Part shown: positions 17,564 to 28,000 of the stretch, piece after piece | Layout of the letters: every line of letters starts with the position of its first letter | How positions within the stretch are numbered: position 1 is the stretch's first letter | From: a virus | Virus record (IMG/VR): IMGVR_UViG_3300025890_000115 | Location: 1-28,000 of that record | Direction: 5' to 3' (one strand) | Length of the DNA stretch: 28,000 nucleotides | The notes under the pieces: generated by a model | The model's database searches: none | Seen by the model: the letters and a program-made list of their open reading frames with translations, nothing else | Told to the model about the DNA's origin: nothing | Translations under genes and position numbers: made by a program

Positions 17564-18406
17564 TTAAGCGGCTTGTGCCATAGATTCTAGCAAAGGAATG
17601 ACTTTTCTTACCTTAGCCTCACGATTGTATATCGTAGCAACTTTGTTAGCTTCATTCTTAAATTTAGCGTGGCTAGACCAGTCAGTTAATGTGTTAAACA
17701 ATGCCCAAACAGTTGTGCCTAATTCAGCTTTGTATTTAAGAAATGTCTCTTCAAGTAAAACCTGTAGCCTGTCACTCTTACCTGCTACTTTTTCAAATAC
17801 TGCTGTAGCTTGTGCATTAGTTACCCCTGCTTTAGCAAACTGTTGCCATAGCTTAACGTTAGCTTCGTAAACCTCAAGAGCTGTCTCAAGCTTCTCGATA
17901 GCAACGTCTGTATCTAGGCTTTTAGTGTGTTTAGCACTATATGAAGAGAAAGCATCAACTACAACCTGTCCGTTCATACAAGCTAGTCTAACAGCTCCCA
18001 ACATAGACATAAACTTCCAAGTGCCATCACATGAATTAAGAACCATGATTTGTAGCTGTACAAAGTCACCAACATCAACTGCCATTTCGTGTGCAGGAAA
18101 CGTGTAGACAACTTTAGTCTTAGCACCATTATGTGAATACTCAATCTTTTTAGTCATGCCAGTCTTGTCTAAACTTGATGCCATAATTACATCGTGGAAC
18201 TGTGGCATGATGTCAGAGTCTTGCACTACATTGTAGTTCTTGCCTACAACTGCTATTGGGTCACCATCTTTATTAACAATAGCTTTATGTGTTTCTAAAC
18301 GCTTAGGCATTTCATCGTCTAAATAAACAGCAGGTCTAGTGTATAAACTCTGCTCATAAACAGTTTGATATTCGTTAGTGTCAGTTACGATTGTTAAATT
18401 TTCCAT
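17564..18406 (-). CDS. DUF932 phage/plasmid-like protein
   Basis: A 280-residue protein with ATAGGAGATAAC before ATG 18406. Matches DUF932 (PF06067, TIGR03299-type): VVGKNYNVVQDSD (about 53-65), a strand-rich block with VVYTFPAHEMAVDVGDF (99-115), VLNSCDGTWKF (122-132) and VRLACMNGQVV (139-149). Residues 165-280 are a long helical C-terminus. The family is common in phages, plasmids and conjugative elements; its function is not settled, though links to anti-restriction or DNA protection have been suggested. Its neighbours are small early genes, including an ArdC-N-like protein, which fits a defence-evasion group. Ends at the intrinsic terminator. Confidence 0.85.
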   Translation of the reverse strand: MENLTIVTDTNEYQTVYEQSLYTRPAVYLDDEMPKRLETHKAIVNKDGDPIAVVGKNYNVVQDSDIMPQFHDVIMASSLDKTGMTKKIEYSHNGAKTKVVYTFPAHEMAVDVGDFVQLQIMVLNSCDGTWKFMSMLGAVRLACMNGQVVVDAFSSYSAKHTKSLDTDVAIEKLETALEVYEANVKLWQQFAKAGVTNAQATAVFEKVAGKSDRLQVLLEETFLKYKAELGTTVWALFNTLTDWSSHAKFKNEANKVATIYNREAKVRKVIPLLESMAQAA

Positions 18407-22394: not shown

Positions 22395-22771
22395 TGGCTA
22401 GACCAACTAAATGGAATAAAGAGATAGAAGAGAAAGCTCTTGCTTACATAGATGACTATCAAATGTATGGTGATATGATTCCAAGTATTGAGGGAATGGC
22501 AGAGCATTTAGGTCTTCACAGAGACACTTTATATGATTGGGCAAAGCAAAAAGATAAAGGGTTTTCCGACATATTAGGCAGATGTATGCAAGTTCAAGCT
22601 AAAACTCTTGTAAACAATGGTCTTAACAACACATTCAATTCAGCAATAACTAAGCTTGTTTTAGGTAAGCATGGATACCACGATAAGATGGAGCAAGACA
22701 TAACATCTAGTGATGAATCTATGAAGCCAACAGTCATACAATTAGTTAGTAAGCATGAGTCAAGTAGCTGA
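22394..22771 (+). CDS. Terminase small subunit
   Basis: A 125-residue DNA-recognition subunit of the packaging motor. It starts with ARPTKWNKEIEEKALAYIDD and has a helix-turn-helix at about 30-52 (SIEGMAEHLGLHRDTLYDWAK), then a helical oligomerisation region (about 55-90) with a KLVLGKHGYHDK segment that is common in this family. The C-terminus overlaps the large subunit gene by 17 bases. Order and size agree with phage small terminases that bind the pac/cos site; the three-way junction 190 bases upstream is a candidate site. Confidence 0.85.
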   Translation: MARPTKWNKEIEEKALAYIDDYQMYGDMIPSIEGMAEHLGLHRDTLYDWAKQKDKGFSDILGRCMQVQAKTLVNNGLNNTFNSAITKLVLGKHGYHDKMEQDITSSDESMKPTVIQLVSKHESSS

Positions 22772-24056
22772 AGTCCAATTACCTGATAAATTAATACCAG
22801 TCTTTGAAGGCACAGCTAGGATTCGTGGAGCTTATGGAGGTCGCGGGAGTGGTAAGACAAGAAGCTTTGCATTAATGACAGCAGTCTTTGGTTATCGTTG
22901 GGGCATGTCAGGTGTCAGAGGAACAATATTGTGTGGTCGTGAGTTTATGAACTCTTTAGGTGAGTCATCAATGGCTGAGATTAAGTCTGCCATTCTTAGT
23001 GTTGATTGGTTAGCTGATTATTATGAGATAGGTGAGAAGTTTATTAGGTCAAAGGATGGCAATATAACTTACACTTTTGCAGGACTAAGACGTTCATTAG
23101 ATAGTATCAAGTCACAGTCTCGCATCCTTATAGCTTGGGTAGATGAGGCTGAGTCAGTTAGTGGCAGAGCATGGGATTTGTTGATGCCTACAGTACGTGA
23201 AGAAGATAAGAGCATTGGCTTTAACTCTGAGGTATGGATAACATGGAATCCTGAGTCAAAGTATAGTGCAACACATGAAAGGTTTAGGGATAGCTTTCCT
23301 TCAGACTCTAAAATTGTTAGTATGCAATGGCAAGATAACCCATGGTTTCCAACAGTTCTCGATGAGCAAAGGCTTGAAGATAAAGAGAAACGTCCTGAGT
23401 CATACGAACACATTTGGGAAGGAGGCTTTTTAATATTTTCAGAGGGTGCATATTATTCTGCTGAATTACGCAGAGCCAAAGATGAAGATAGAATTACAAA
23501 GGTTAGATATGACAGAGCCAAAGGTGTAGTTACAAGTTGGGATTTAGGTATAGGTGACAGCACATCAATAGTCTTTGCACAATTCATAGGAGCTGAGATA
23601 CATATTATTGATTATTATGAAGGCTCAGGTGTAGGACTAGAGCATTACGTTAAGGTGTTGCAAGATAAAGGTTATGTTTATGAACAACACGTATTACCAC
23701 ATGATGTTAGAGTTAGGGAATTAGGCACAGGTAAAAGTAGAATGGAGATGCTTGAAGACTTAGGCATTAACAACATTGAGATAGCACCATCATTGTTGAT
23801 TGATGATGGCATACAACAAGTCAGAACAATGCTAGACAAATGCTATTTCGATGAGGTATCATGTGAGAAACTTATCGATTCCTTACAGGCTTACAGCAGA
23901 GAGTGGGATGATAATGGTAAGACTTGGAGGATGAGACCGAGACACGATTGGAGTTCACATGGTGCGGATGCCACACGCTATATGGCAATAGGCTACAAGC
24001 CTTTTAATGAGAACTGGGATAAACCATTAAGGAGAAACTTGCAAGGAGTAGTATGA
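22755..24056 (+). CDS. Terminase large subunit
   Basis: A 433-residue packaging ATPase and nuclease. Walker A GGRGSGKT at 28-35, Walker B ILIAWVDEAE at 124-133 (Asp130, Glu131), coupling motif WITWNPESK at 161-169. The nuclease domain begins near 255: SWDLGIGDST (261-270, Asp263), an acidic LPHDV (Asp317) and HGADATRY (402-409, Asp405). All ATPase and RNase-H-like nuclease residues are present and the length is normal. It docks on the portal, pumps DNA into the procapsid and cuts the concatemer. Its stop overlaps the next gene as ATGA. Confidence 0.95.
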   Translation: MSQVAEVQLPDKLIPVFEGTARIRGAYGGRGSGKTRSFALMTAVFGYRWGMSGVRGTILCGREFMNSLGESSMAEIKSAILSVDWLADYYEIGEKFIRSKDGNITYTFAGLRRSLDSIKSQSRILIAWVDEAESVSGRAWDLLMPTVREEDKSIGFNSEVWITWNPESKYSATHERFRDSFPSDSKIVSMQWQDNPWFPTVLDEQRLEDKEKRPESYEHIWEGGFLIFSEGAYYSAELRRAKDEDRITKVRYDRAKGVVTSWDLGIGDSTSIVFAQFIGAEIHIIDYYEGSGVGLEHYVKVLQDKGYVYEQHVLPHDVRVRELGTGKSRMEMLEDLGINNIEIAPSLLIDDGIQQVRTMLDKCYFDEVSCEKLIDSLQAYSREWDDNGKTWRMRPRHDWSSHGADATRYMAIGYKPFNENWDKPLRRNLQGVV

Positions 24057-26962
24057 GTTTGCTACAAGAGCCTGATAAAAAACCTGTGCAATTAAACAGC
24101 CTTATGTCAAACATTGCTGAAGGTGCAAGTGACTTTGTTGGTGATACGCTTGGTGGTATATGGTCATTTATGAGTGACCCATCACAAGAAAAAGTAAAAC
24201 AAGCAAACATAGATGAAGAAGCTATAAAGTTAGAGCGTTTGACTCCTGATAAGTATGGCAATACTCCACAAGCATGGATGTATGCAGAACGTTCAGATAA
24301 CCCAAACAAATTTAAAAGATTCTTTGAAAACATTGACTACAATGCAGGTCGTTTTTATCGAGAAGGTTCTCGTATGTTTAGAGTTCCTGAAGAAACAATA
24401 GAGCCTGTAGGTAATTTAATAGCAGGTGGTGTACTTAATTTATCAGGTGGTTTAATAAGTGAAGACATTGGTACTGAACAACGAGCTACAGCCAATGCAT
24501 TTGCAGATACACTAAAAAATACATTTTCAAGTTGGGATAATTTAACAGATGCGATAGCCAATAATCCATTAGATTTTATGGCTCTTGCATTAGGTGGTGG
24601 ATACAATGCAAAAAAACTTGCTGATTTAGCAAACAATCCTGCTGTTAAAGAATCATTTAGAAACACATTGCAATCATTGCCTGACCCTGCTGACTTATTA
24701 GCTAACAACAAAATGACAAGTCAGTTTATACCTGACCCTAGACAATTCTTAATGATGTGGCATGGCTCACCTAGAAACTTTACTGAATTAGATAACAAGT
24801 TTATGTTAACAGGTGAAGGTAACAATGTTAAAGGTGCAGGGTTTTACATGGGGGGTAGAGCATCAACATCAAAACAATACTTTGGTGAAATAGACAAATA
24901 CAATCAAACGTATGACACTACAGACTTTGATTTATTTCAAGATGAAGTTGTTGCTAGAAAACGTGAAGCAGACTTTGGTGACAACAAAAGCGAAATAGTT
25001 TCTCATATGTGGAAAGAAGTCAGAGACGATACAGCTACACCAAGTGAAGTGAGTTGGTTGTTAGATAAATACAAAGACCATCCTGATTTGCCAAAACTTA
25101 AAGAAGCTATTAAAGAGTATAAAGAATTGTGGTCAGACCAACCATTTAGTTTAATGAAGTTTGATGTGAAAGACGAATACGTGTCTACGTTTCTTAATGA
25201 TGCTAAAGCAGTATATGACCAACCTGAAGCTGTTAAAAATTTAATACGACAAGAAAATGGTGCTTATATGGATTTAGTAGAAGCATATAAAAAGAACTCA
25301 GGTAACAAGATTGAGCAAGACAAAATTGTAGCTGAAATAAACGCATTAGGAGATTTTCCACATCCTGAAAATGGTATTGATTTATATGATTTCTTTGTTG
25401 ATAGACGTGCTGAACAATTCCCTTCTGCTGACATGAGTACACATAATTTAGAAGTTTCTAAATATTTACATGACAATGGTGTTATGGGAAGACGTTGGGC
25501 AGATGACCTAAGCACTAAATACCCTGATTTGTATGACAGCGAAAACTATCTAATATTCGATGCTAAAACAGCAGAAATGTTTGAAAGAAACGAAGTACCA
25601 GTTATACCAAACCCAATGATAGCTCAACATAATTTAACAGAAAAAGCATTAGAAAAACATTTAGAAAATACTGGTATACCTATGCCATCAATTGGAATAT
25701 CAAAAGTAGATACACCTTTACGTGGTTATGGAGAAATAGGTTTATTAGCATCACCTGAAATGATTACACCAAGTAGAGACACAAAAGTTTATCCTACAGA
25801 TATGTATTCAGGTCGTGCGCCATATGACCAGTTAAATTACGTAGACCCACAAGGTGTGCTTGACAAGATTGACCCTGATATATTAAGATTTGTTAGTAGC
25901 ACTAAACCTTTGCCAAATCCTGATGAATTATATACAGGTGGTGGTATAGCACAAGCTAAAGGTATGACAAATCGAGAATACATTAATGATAAAGCTAGAC
26001 GTAACTTTGAACTTAAAGAAAACCATACTGGCATATTAGAAAGAAACTTCAAAGAAATAGATGAAATGATTGAAAGAGGGTTTGACCCTTATCAATTTGA
26101 TACTTTAGCACAAGCAAGGTCAGAGATAGACAGCATTCTTAGAAATAATAATGAGCCTAGATTATCAAGATTTTCAAGTGATATGACTTCAGATGAATTA
26201 TTAGGTGAGTCTATAAGAGTAATGCACAATCCGAAAGGTTATAGGTCAGATACTACAGGTGAAATATTGCCTGATGTTCCTTATTCTGCTGAACTTGCTT
26301 TAAAAGAAATGCGTAAGAAAAAAGCACAAAACGTTGGAGCAGAAAATCATGTAAGTGCTAACAAAACATATGCTTTAGCAACACAACCATTCAAAAATTT
26401 AGATGAAATAAAACAGCAACGTGGCATTTTAGAAAGTGATGGGTTTTCTGAAAACGCATTGCCTGATGATGATTGGTATGCTTTACTTGACTCTGTACAT
26501 GATGAATTAAATGATTTAAAACCCTTTAAACAAAACAAATATAGAGTAGCTTTTATTGACGAAGTTTTAGCTAACAATGGCATAACTAAAGAATTAATAG
26601 ATGATATGGCTTATATGCCTGATGAAGCTAAGAAAGCTGAGGAGATAGTATTTAAGTTAAGAAATAGGACAGACATATCAGAAGAACCAACATCAGGTTT
26701 ATTAGCAACAGAATACTTTGAGGCAAAGCCAAACAAAATAATAGACATAGCTGAATTTAAAGGTGCAATTATTCCTGAAGATACAAAACCAAAAATTATA
26801 GAATTGCTCAAACAAAAAGGCATTAAAAAAATATTAAGTTACGGAAGTGAAGCTGAACGTTTAAAATTATTTAAAGAGTTTCCTGAGTTACAGTTTATTG
26901 GATTAGCTATGCCAATGAGTTTGTTGTCAGGTGAGGAAGAACAAAGAACAGGATTATTATAA
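24053..26962 (+). CDS. Large polyvalent-type protein with ADP-ribosyltransferase-like domain
   Basis: A 969-residue protein coupled to terminase by ATGA. Residues 1-215 are a helical lead with a Gly-rich hydrophobic stretch (GNLIAGGVLNLSGGLI, about 120-135). Residues about 232-300 resemble ADP-ribosyltransferases of phage polyvalent proteins: MMWHGSPRNF (234-243, His237), ELD, TGEGNNVKGAGFYMG (253-267, Tyr265) and SKQYFGEID (273-281). From about 522 on there is a second conserved-looking module: LTEKALEKHL, PMPSIGISK (about 543), GYGEIGLL, and later EAKPNKIIDIAEFKGAIIP (about 886-904). It ends with a hydrophobic LAMPMSLLSG. Large size and location among head genes suggest a protein packed in the capsid and injected, where it could modify host targets. 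Enzyme activity is inferred only. Confidence 0.7.
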   Translation: MSLLQEPDKKPVQLNSLMSNIAEGASDFVGDTLGGIWSFMSDPSQEKVKQANIDEEAIKLERLTPDKYGNTPQAWMYAERSDNPNKFKRFFENIDYNAGRFYREGSRMFRVPEETIEPVGNLIAGGVLNLSGGLISEDIGTEQRATANAFADTLKNTFSSWDNLTDAIANNPLDFMALALGGGYNAKKLADLANNPAVKESFRNTLQSLPDPADLLANNKMTSQFIPDPRQFLMMWHGSPRNFTELDNKFMLTGEGNNVKGAGFYMGGRASTSKQYFGEIDKYNQTYDTTDFDLFQDEVVARKREADFGDNKSEIVSHMWKEVRDDTATPSEVSWLLDKYKDHPDLPKLKEAIKEYKELWSDQPFSLMKFDVKDEYVSTFLNDAKAVYDQPEAVKNLIRQENGAYMDLVEAYKKNSGNKIEQDKIVAEINALGDFPHPENGIDLYDFFVDRRAEQFPSADMSTHNLEVSKYLHDNGVMGRRWADDLSTKYPDLYDSENYLIFDAKTAEMFERNEVPVIPNPMIAQHNLTEKALEKHLENTGIPMPSIGISKVDTPLRGYGEIGLLASPEMITPSRDTKVYPTDMYSGRAPYDQLNYVDPQGVLDKIDPDILRFVSSTKPLPNPDELYTGGGIAQAKGMTNREYINDKARRNFELKENHTGILERNFKEIDEMIERGFDPYQFDTLAQARSEIDSILRNNNEPRLSRFSSDMTSDELLGESIRVMHNPKGYRSDTTGEILPDVPYSAELALKEMRKKKAQNVGAENHVSANKTYALATQPFKNLDEIKQQRGILESDGFSENALPDDDWYALLDSVHDELNDLKPFKQNKYRVAFIDEVLANNGITKELIDDMAYMPDEAKKAEEIVFKLRNRTDISEEPTSGLLATEYFEAKPNKIIDIAEFKGAIIPEDTKPKIIELLKQKGIKKILSYGSEAERLKLFKEFPELQFIGLAMPMSLLSGEEEQRTGLL

Positions 26963-27005: not shown

Positions 27006-27548
27006 ATGAATGAATATGAATTAGCCTTAAAAGAATACATGGACAGACTTAAAGGTGGCTTTCAAGGAGCTATGACTGGTGTTATGGATGGTCTTGGTGG
27101 TGGAACTCCTCTCGCAGGTAAAATACAAGAAAACAATTTCTTGAAAAGCGTGATGGGTGGTGAAACAGCTACTAATCCTATGACAACTACAGATAATTTA
27201 GACCCTGTTAACATGCGCTCAATGGTAAGAACAAACAATGCTAGTGGCACAAACCCATTAATGTTTGCAGGAGCAGAAGCAGTTGGTGGAGGACTAAACG
27301 CAATGGCACAACCTGTTGTTAACAGTTTAGGTTTTCCTGATAGTAGAGGTTTTGATACACCTGCTGAGGCAAATGCGTATACAATGGATGCTACAGAAGC
27401 ATTAGTGAATAGCATGACTGATGACGAACACAATGTATACATGCAATTAGATGATTTTCAAAGACCTGCGTTTCTTGAAGCGTTAAGACAAAACAAAATA
27501 CCATCATACGAAGCAGAAAACTTCGATAGATTAATGAGACCTTACTAA
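27006..27548 (+). CDS. Unknown virion-type protein
   Basis: A 180-residue soluble protein with AGAGGACATCTT before ATG 27006. Gly/Met/Asn-rich N-terminal two thirds (LKGGFQGAMTGVMDGLGGGTP, about 15-35, in two parts) and a helical end with MTDDEHNVYMQLDDFQRPAFL (about 137-157, in two parts). No family recognised. Position between the large polyvalent-type protein and the adaptor suggests a head or injected protein. Coupled to the adaptor by TAATG. Confidence 0.65.
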   Translation: MNEYELALKEYMDRLKGGFQGAMTGVMDGLGGGTPLAGKIQENNFLKSVMGGETATNPMTTTDNLDPVNMRSMVRTNNASGTNPLMFAGAEAVGGGLNAMAQPVVNSLGFPDSRGFDTPAEANAYTMDATEALVNSMTDDEHNVYMQLDDFQRPAFLEALRQNKIPSYEAENFDRLMRPY

Positions 27549-28000
27549 TGGCTTTATCTAATTACACAGGACTAAAAGCTTCTATAGCTGACTTTTTAAA
27601 CAGAGATGACCTTACAGCAGTCATACCTGACTTTATTACTTTAGCTGAAGCACAAATAAACAGAGACATTAGACACTTTAAAATGGAAGCAAGGTCTAGT
27701 GGTCAACAATCTAGTGGTGATGAGTACATGCAAGTACCTTCAGACTGGATAGAAACAATAAGATTACATCTTACAGGCTCAGGCACTACAGTTGTTAACC
27801 TAGTCTCTAGAGATGCAATGGCGGACAAAAGAGCCGCTAACGAGAATGCCACAGGCACACCTCGTATGTACACACACGCAGATGGACAATTTCAATTGTA
27901 CCCAACTCCGTCAGTAGACACAGATTTTGAGTTGCTTTACTATCAGAAAGTACCATCCCTTAGTAGTAACTCAGATAACTGGCTTTTGCTAGAAGCACCT
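27548..28000 (+). CDS. SU10-type adaptor/head-completion protein (partial)
   Basis: 151 residues are visible before the window ends. It starts ALSNYTGLKASIADFLNRDD, continues with FITLAEAQINRDIRHFKME (about 36-54), VPSDWIETIRLHL (about 71-83), then PRMYTHADGQFQLYPTPS and FELLYYQKVPSLS. This order, a helical start and a beta part with xLYPxPxxxxxxELLYYxKxPxLS, is that of the SU10-type adaptor family, which joins portal and tail in short-tailed phages. It agrees with the SU10-type capsid protein at 1112. Portal or tail genes should follow beyond the window. Confidence 0.82.
   Translation, partial: MALSNYTGLKASIADFLNRDDLTAVIPDFITLAEAQINRDIRHFKMEARSSGQQSSGDEYMQVPSDWIETIRLHLTGSGTTVVNLVSRDAMADKRAANENATGTPRMYTHADGQFQLYPTPSVDTDFELLYYQKVPSLSSNSDNWLLLEAP

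What the first reader, a model, noticed from the sequence alone, without database searches (positions are those of the whole stretch)
24053..26962. 969-residue protein with ADP-ribosyltransferase-like module, probably injected
The MWHGSPxNF...LD...GEG....GAGFYMG...Y pattern near residues 235-281 is the look of ADP-ribosyltransferases found in large phage polyvalent proteins. A second module (PSIGISK ... GEIGLL ... EAKPxxxIDIxEFKGAIIP) is also typical of such proteins. It lies directly behind terminase, within head genes, so it may travel in the capsid and modify host proteins on entry, as T4 Alt does.
Basis: partly seen in the sequence, partly recalled or inferred. Interest (0 to 1): 0.66.

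Follow-up and report, generated by a model that had tools for sequence, protein, structure and literature searches.

The report
Phage protein with ADP-ribosyltransferase-like module
A phage carries, right behind its DNA-packaging gene, a 969-residue protein that joins an ADP-ribosyltransferase-like enzyme module to a second predicted enzyme module; it probably rides in the particle and acts on the host at entry, a known kind of phage weapon, here with modules that close relatives swap or drop.

Summary
In detail: 24053-26962 (+) is a 969-codon ORF with an RBS, overlapping the TerL stop. The ART-like module is real but larger than seen: residues ~234-511, with a helical insert. A profile of 37 phage ARTs scores it 53 bits (best of 1000 shuffles 8.8). 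Its AlphaFold model resembles ARTs (best Z 10.3, a cyanophage A4 ejection protein; then ParT, diphtheria toxin, tankyrase). H237 and Y265 are kept in 43 of 44 rows. It is below Pfam PF18760's cut-off. The second module is PF18814 ('PBECR5', predicted RNase; 43.9 bits, cut-off 25), but its model resembles DarT/Tpt1/CteC ARTs (Z 7.0-5.3; next unrelated row 4.0), so the nuclease label is open. Synteny TerL-slot-adaptor-head genes is conserved; of 15 records, 7 have the ART and 8 lack it, and one ART+/ART- pair shares the C-terminal module at 95%. Delivery into the host is likely from context and precedent, but untested. A new member of the known 'polyvalent protein' kind, with informative module swapping.

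The parts
24053..26962 (+). 969-aa polyvalent protein (P0001)
   Evidence: ORF; relatives 60-66% identical
24043..24048 (+). ribosome-binding site AAGGAG; the ATG overlaps the TerL stop
   Evidence: sequence
24053..24667 (+). N-terminal module, residues 1-205, function unknown (perhaps virion targeting, inferred)
   Evidence: conserved among ART+ relatives (47-93% pairwise identity); weak match, residues 144-202, to the N-terminal part of ART- relatives (hhalign 28.6 against 17.6 for the best of 20 shuffles)
24752..25585 (+). ART-like module, residues 234-511
   Evidence: profile, predicted fold
24761..24763 (+). His237 codon, strand 1
   Evidence: 43 of 44 rows
24845..24847 (+). Tyr265 codon, strand 2
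   Evidence: 43 of 44 rows
24905..25432 (+). mostly helical insert in the ART module, about residues 285-460 (holds one long strand, about 365-373)
   Evidence: model secondary structure
25544..25561 (+). Asn498 to Asp503, strand 5: candidates for the third active-site residue
   Evidence: N498 38 of 44 and D503 39 of 44, three rows gapped
25616..26887 (+). PF18814 module, residues 522-945: N-terminal core 522-587 and C-terminal core 886-945 around a helical insert
   Evidence: 43.9 bits over 522-587; conservation to the C-terminus in 21 relatives; model
22755..24056 (+). terminase large subunit (context)
   Evidence: Terminase_3 70.8 bits
22394..22771 (+). terminase small subunit (context)
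   Evidence: GP3_package 71.1 bits
27006..27548 (+). 180-aa gene without family match (context)
27548..28000 (+). adaptor-like virion structural protein, cut by the window end (context)
   Evidence: phrog_2941, 184.6 bits, read from L001

Best explanation
The gene encodes a phage 'polyvalent' effector. It lies among the late head genes (shown), is probably loaded into the capsid and delivered with the DNA (inferred), and brings two enzyme modules behind an N-terminal module of unknown function. The middle module is a large H-Y type ADP-ribosyltransferase-like domain (homology and predicted fold shown, activity inferred) that would take NAD+ and put ADP-ribose on a host protein or nucleic acid early in infection. 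The C-terminal module is PF18814, an RNase by its curators' name but ART-like by predicted fold. Modules can be joined anew at the module border in related phages (shown for one pair), as expected of effectors in an arms race.
For: Profile of independent phage ARTs; rows 1-32 of the fold comparison are ART-type structures, the first being a protein of the cyanophage A4 pre-ejectosome; H237 and Y265 kept in 43 of 44; PF18814 over its cut-off and in 8 of 8 contigs; conserved TerL-slot-adaptor synteny; module swap between L010 and L079; a cultured phage with a 69% identical capsid protein has another weakly ART-like protein in the same slot. Precedent for packaged ARTs and for ARTs beside terminase and head genes: PMC5512222, PMC9503650 (passages).
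Against: No virion, activity or infection data. PF18760 itself does not match. Foldseek finds no significant PDB match for either model. The PARP Glu position appears to be Asn498. L077 lacks the Tyr and may be inactive. Eight of 15 slot records do without the ART, so it is not essential to the phage group.
Confidence: 0.62

Rival explanations
1. The ART-like module is a degenerate, non-catalytic domain that binds NAD+ or a partner, or is a structural part of the ejection apparatus.
For: Asn498 at the apparent Glu position; Tyr lost in L077; an ART-like domain sits in an ejection-apparatus protein of A-4L.
Against: H237, Y265 and the glycine motifs are almost invariant over 44 divergent rows, which suggests a kept active site; mono-ARTs without the Glu are known (recalled).
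Confidence: 0.2
2. The protein is made late but not packaged: an ART that acts in the infected cell during assembly or against rival phages.
For: Only the gene context speaks for packaging; T4 has such non-injected ARTs, ModA and ModB (PMC5512222 section 9).
Against: Position directly between terminase and adaptor in 11 contigs where both flanks are seen or partly seen; A-4L precedent inside a pre-ejectosome entry.
Confidence: 0.18
3. The PF18814 module is, as its name says, a BECR-fold RNase, so the protein is ART plus RNase.
For: Curated family; a His and a C-terminal Thr/Ser as named in PMC5512222 section 19 are present as H526 (21 of 21) and T886 (20 of 21). Z of 7 lies in the range the tool calls common; Foldseek is not significant; no sequence link to DarT (0 of 12 records) or to the ART group or KptA.
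Against: All seven entries with Z above 5 are ART-superfamily structures of three groups (DarT, Tpt1, CteC) and the next unrelated row is Z 4.0; H526 lies in a strand, not a helix, in a model of pLDDT 83.6; E890 is 21 of 21.
Confidence: 0.45

Closest known systems
Phage polyvalent proteins with ART and PBECR domains (PMC5512222)
   Same: Several enzyme modules in one late phage protein beside packaging and head genes; H-Y type ART; PF18814 match
   Different: The ART is a long form below the PF18760 cut-off; no metallopeptidase or other module was found by Pfam
Anabaena phage A-4L A4L_27 (PDB 9k3a chain B, pre-ejectosome)
   Same: Best fold match of the ART model, Z 10.3 over 167 residues, in a virion entry; HGT...GSGTYF motif
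   Different: 1717 aa, no sequence similarity by the ART profile (1.4 bits), no PF18814 found by Pfam
Octadecabacter Antarctic DB virus 2 gp6
   Same: Same slot before the adaptor in a cultured phage with 69% identical capsid protein; weak ART-PolyVal match, 20.7 bits, cut-off 31.2
   Different: 493 aa, no meaningful BLASTP match to P0001, another ART branch (-0.5 bits with the long-form profile); two small genes between TerL and gp6
Roseobacter phages CRP-901 and CRP-902 'nuclease'
   Same: PF18814 module, 24-26% identity
   Different: Only about 515 aa, no ART module in the CRP-902 protein by Pfam
T4 Alt
   Same: A phage ART carried in the capsid (PMC5512222)
   Different: R-S-E active site, a different ART clade (PMC5512222 section 9); carriage of P0001 untested

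Membership tests
ART-PolyVal (Pfam PF18760) | score over Pfam's gathering cut-off | tested here: not met
   No match in the window; of five long-form relatives scanned four match at 23.7-30 bits and one not at all, cut-off 31.2
H-Y-D ARTs of polyvalent proteins (PMC5512222 section 9) | His in strand 1 | tested here: met
   H237 in model strand 18-25, 43 of 44 rows
H-Y-D ARTs of polyvalent proteins (PMC5512222 section 9) | Tyr in strand 2 | tested here: met
   Y265 in model strand 50-53, 43 of 44 rows
H-Y-D ARTs of polyvalent proteins (PMC5512222 section 9) | Asp in strand 5 | tested here: inconclusive
   D503 39 of 44 rows, but just behind model strand 283-287, in which N498 lies
ART superfamily | ART core fold | tested here: met
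   Predicted model only: rows 1-32 of VIA-align are ART-type, Z 10.3-6.2; Foldseek alone not significant in the PDB
ART superfamily | NAD+-dependent ADP-ribose transfer | not testable with these tools
   needs an assay
PBECR5 (Pfam PF18814) | score over Pfam's gathering cut-off | tested here: met
   43.9 bits, cut-off 25; the match covers positions 16-83 of 239
PBECR (BECR-fold RNase) | BECR fold | tested here: inconclusive
   The model's best matches are ART structures, Z 7.0-5.3; a family that is not listed is not excluded
[quoted passage not shown]
   H526 21 of 21 and T886 20 of 21, but H526 lies in a strand of the model, before the helix
DarT (PF14487) | profile match | tested here: not met
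   0 of 12 records at E<=10; resemblance is by predicted fold only
Phage polyvalent proteins | two or more effector-type domains in one protein | tested here: met
   ART-like module and PF18814
Phage polyvalent proteins | encoded with packaging or virion genes | tested here: met
Phage polyvalent proteins | carried in the virion and delivered | not testable with these tools
   needs virion proteomics
T4 Alt/VIP2 clade | R-S-E active site | tested here: not met
   H-Y type motifs instead

The most novel reading that the evidence does not exclude
PF18814 ('PBECR5 nuclease') is misfiled: it is a second, DarT/Tpt1-like ADP-ribosyltransferase with H526, R588 and E890 as likely site residues. This protein would then be a double ART, delivered from a terminase-adjacent slot whose enzyme modules are exchanged between phages, and many phage proteins now labelled nuclease would be NAD+ enzymes.
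Probability: 0.4. Interest if true: 0.65.

Novelty: new member of a known kind. Interest (0 to 1): 0.5.

Why it matters
It adds another phage lineage to those that seem to bring ADP-ribosyltransferases into the cell, and it offers a natural series (same slot with and without the ART, one near-identical C-terminal module on different N-terminal parts) from which the role of each module could be tested. If the fold reading of the C-terminal module is right, a Pfam family of phage 'nucleases' needs a new functional label. The match to the A4 ejection protein suggests that an ART-like domain has already been seen inside a virion by cryo-EM.

Tried and rejected
PF18760 against the window: no match. 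Sequence searches of the PDB: P0001 none; the ART profile and the PF18814 profile only chance helical matches. Host: two scans of genome contigs found no relative and there is no tRNA gene; the host is not determined, and a marine Rhodobacteraceae host is only a guess from the 69% capsid match. That L077's ART (23% identical while its flanking modules are about 50%) was acquired separately was not borne out: the five slot ARTs form one side of a branch (support 88/94, long-branch warning). A sequence link between PF18814 and ARTs was sought and not found: hhalign of the core to the ART profile 21.85 against 21.57 for the best of 30 shuffles, to E. coli KptA nothing. The match reported is only the residues shared by the two alignments and was discarded. 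KptA relatives in viral contigs: none found. In the PF18814 fold list no BECR structure appears; this is not used as evidence. NCBIfam gave P0001 only a match far below its cut-off. The paper library holds no text with PBECR5 or PF18814, and 'cyanophage A4' had no occurrence in the 20 papers listed of 63, so whether the A4 domain has been named an ART in print could not be checked.

Rows dropped: of 42 ART loci I left out L021, L032 and L054 (near-copies) and L055 (partial), and the script dropped L056 (four stops), which leaves 37; A5 uses 27 of these 37 plus three slot proteins. L081 (open 5' end) is in no count of ART presence. Refetched copies of contigs already counted (L007, L013 and L069; L014 and L070; L015 and L078) are not counted twice, though L078 stands in the printout. 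L008 and L009 are near-copies in this gene, and the window and L001 are the same virus; all four are counted as records.
Full report
What is there. The window is a 28,000-base virus record. ORF 24053-26962 (+) has 969 codons, an AAGGAG site and an ATG that overlaps the TerL stop. Upstream lie TerS (GP3_package, 71.1 bits) and TerL (Terminase_3, 70.8 bits). Downstream, partly read from contig L001, which is identical to the window over 5694 bases, lie a 180-aa gene without family match, an adaptor-like structural protein (phrog_2941), a head protein (phrog_240) and further structural proteins (phrog_6005, phrog_3287). The window's other end holds a scaffold protein and an SU10-type major capsid protein.

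ART module. Pfam's ART-PolyVal model does not match the window. The protein's ART stretch weakly found Tunturi_5 gp273 (E 0.09) and LS06-2018-MD07 (E 0.9) in the phage collection. The Tunturi_5 domain, used as query, gave 42 viral loci. A profile of 37 of them, without Tunturi_5, LS06 and P0001, scores P0001 53.1 bits, with the match over residues 235-506; the best of 1000 shuffles gets 8.8; hhalign gives probability 98.3 over 221 columns. With Tunturi_5 and LS06 included the score is 60.2 and the best of 118 other window ORFs gets 2.8. Tunturi_5 gp273 is a clear PF18760 protein (145 bits, three stretches); of five other members scanned four match PF18760 at 23.7-30 bits, under the cut-off of 31.2, and one does not match. 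So the module belongs to a long-form group linked to ART-PolyVal but under its cut-off.

Structure. An AlphaFold2 model of residues 215-530 on 30 sequences has mean pLDDT 73.4, with 91 residues at 90 or more. Foldseek finds nothing at E<=1e-3 in the PDB. VIA-align on 264 of Foldseek's best chains puts ART-type structures in rows 1-32: 9k3a_B (Z 10.3), ParT (9.6), diphtheria toxin (8.4), tankyrase 2 (8.3), a RES toxin (8.1), MbcT (7.7), PARP2 (6.4), NatT (6.3) and an anti-CRISPR protein, 6kyf (6.2; that this and some other entries are ARTs is recalled). Unrelated helical rows start at 5.1. Several Z values lie near the level that the tool calls common; the consistency of the rows is the argument. 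Among predicted viral structures 27 match at E<=1e-3, 7 of them named ART-PolyVal-like or PolyVal ART, though with TM-scores on the query of 0.30-0.48 and mostly large rmsd.

Active site. In an alignment of 44 ARTs H237 and Y265 are kept in 43, G254, G256 and G263 in 44, N498 in 38 and D503 in 39 (three rows gapped there). From the ends of the tankyrase alignments, if ungapped there, N498 falls on the position of the catalytic Glu of PARPs (inference; the Glu number is recalled). PMC5512222 (section 9 read) gives His, Tyr and an Asp in strand 5 for these ARTs; D503 is the candidate. Which residue acts is open. L077 has Asn for Y265 and may be dead.

C-terminal module. PF18814 matches at 43.9 bits (cut-off 25) and is over the cut-off in 8 of 8 contigs tested; 21 of 21 members of alignment A9 match it. 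In A9, H526, P545, S546, G560, I562, P573, D583, Y585, R588, E764, Y888, F889, E890, K892 and P908 are invariant and T886 is kept in 20 of 21. The model has pLDDT 83.6 and no significant Foldseek match. VIA-align ranks DarT1 (Z 7.0, 140 residues), DarT of Thermosipho (6.9), yeast Tpt1 (6.6, 2.3 A over 91 residues) and CteC (6.2, and three more entries down to 5.3) first, then unrelated rows from 4.0 down, with further Tpt1 entries at 3.5-3.4. The ranges span both ends of the model. The start of the Tpt1 alignments would put H526 within a few residues of the HGT histidine of Tpt1 (inference from ranges and from the KptA comparison). No sequence method supports the link. PMC5512222 section 19 (read) predicts RNase activity for PBECR families; in the parts that I read no separate evidence for this one family is given.

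The slot and its modules. Fifteen records hold this gene: the window, L001, L008, L009, L010, L077 and L088 with the ART, and L071-L076, L079 and L080 without. Leaving out the window, TerL is seen directly upstream in 13 of 14 and the adaptor downstream in 11 of 14; in the others the fetched stretch ends too early. L010 (with ART) and L079 (without) share the C-terminal module at 95% protein identity (442 residues) and 96% DNA identity over 1341 bases that begin at the module border, while their N-terminal parts share 27%. P0001 and L010 share 70% (N-terminal), 79% (ART) and 45% (C-terminal). So recombination has joined modules at the border between ART and PF18814. The N-terminal parts of the two kinds may be related (weak). 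The slot ARTs form one group in a tree with long-branch warnings, compatible with one gain and later losses.

Delivery. Octadecabacter Antarctic DB virus 2 is collinear in the structural block (capsid 69%, adaptor 49.5%, phrog_3287 protein 58.5%) and has before the adaptor a 493-aa protein with a weak ART-PolyVal match. A search of its paper's text (PMC9239159, passages) finds no 'mass spectrometry'. The best fold match, 9k3a chain B, is Anabaena phage A-4L A4L_27, in an entry titled pre-ejectosome; the matched stretch holds LYHGT...GSGTYF and Pfam sees no ART there. PMC9503650 (passages) argues that ARTs next to terminase and head genes are packaged and puts about 44% of the phage ARTs recovered in contexts that suggest packaging. 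Carriage of P0001 is therefore likely and unproven.

Verdict. The protein is a new member of a known kind. What goes beyond the known is the module swapping in a terminase-adjacent slot and the possibility that PF18814 is itself ART-like.

Noticed in passing
L103 20116-25269 (-), residues about 1424 on (Anabaena phage A-4L A4L_27, PDB 9k3a_B): A protein solved in a phage pre-ejectosome has a stretch (LYHGT...GSGTYF) that is the best fold match of the ART model; Pfam and the ART profile do not see it.
   Followed up: partly
window 25586-26923 and relatives (alignment A9): The PF18814 'nuclease' model resembles DarT, Tpt1 and CteC ARTs rather than showing a clear nuclease match.
   Followed up: partly
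L104 2752-4233 (Octadecabacter Antarctic DB virus 2 gp6): The protein in the same slot of a cultured sea-ice phage is annotated hypothetical and has a weak ART-PolyVal match.
   Followed up: partly
L077 2486-5416: A slot relative keeps the ART module but with Asn for the Tyr and Met for the Glu of the GEG motif, perhaps a dead copy.
   Followed up: no
L011 5583-10052 (Tunturi_5 gp273): 1489-aa jumbo-phage protein behind a minor head protein, annotated MutT/NUDIX hydrolase, with three ART-PolyVal stretches, GNAT and NUDIX domains.
   Followed up: no
L012 1906-11265 (Rhodobacteraceae phage LS06-2018-MD07): A protein of over 3000 residues next to an internal virion protein, annotated methyltransferase, holds a long-form ART (111.9 bits).
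   Followed up: no
window 27006-27548 and the same place in L074, L075, L077: The small gene between the slot and the adaptor varies in length between relatives and may itself be an exchanged gene.
   Followed up: no
window 17564-18406 (-): A DUF932 protein (71.8 bits) in the minus-strand gene block.
   Followed up: no
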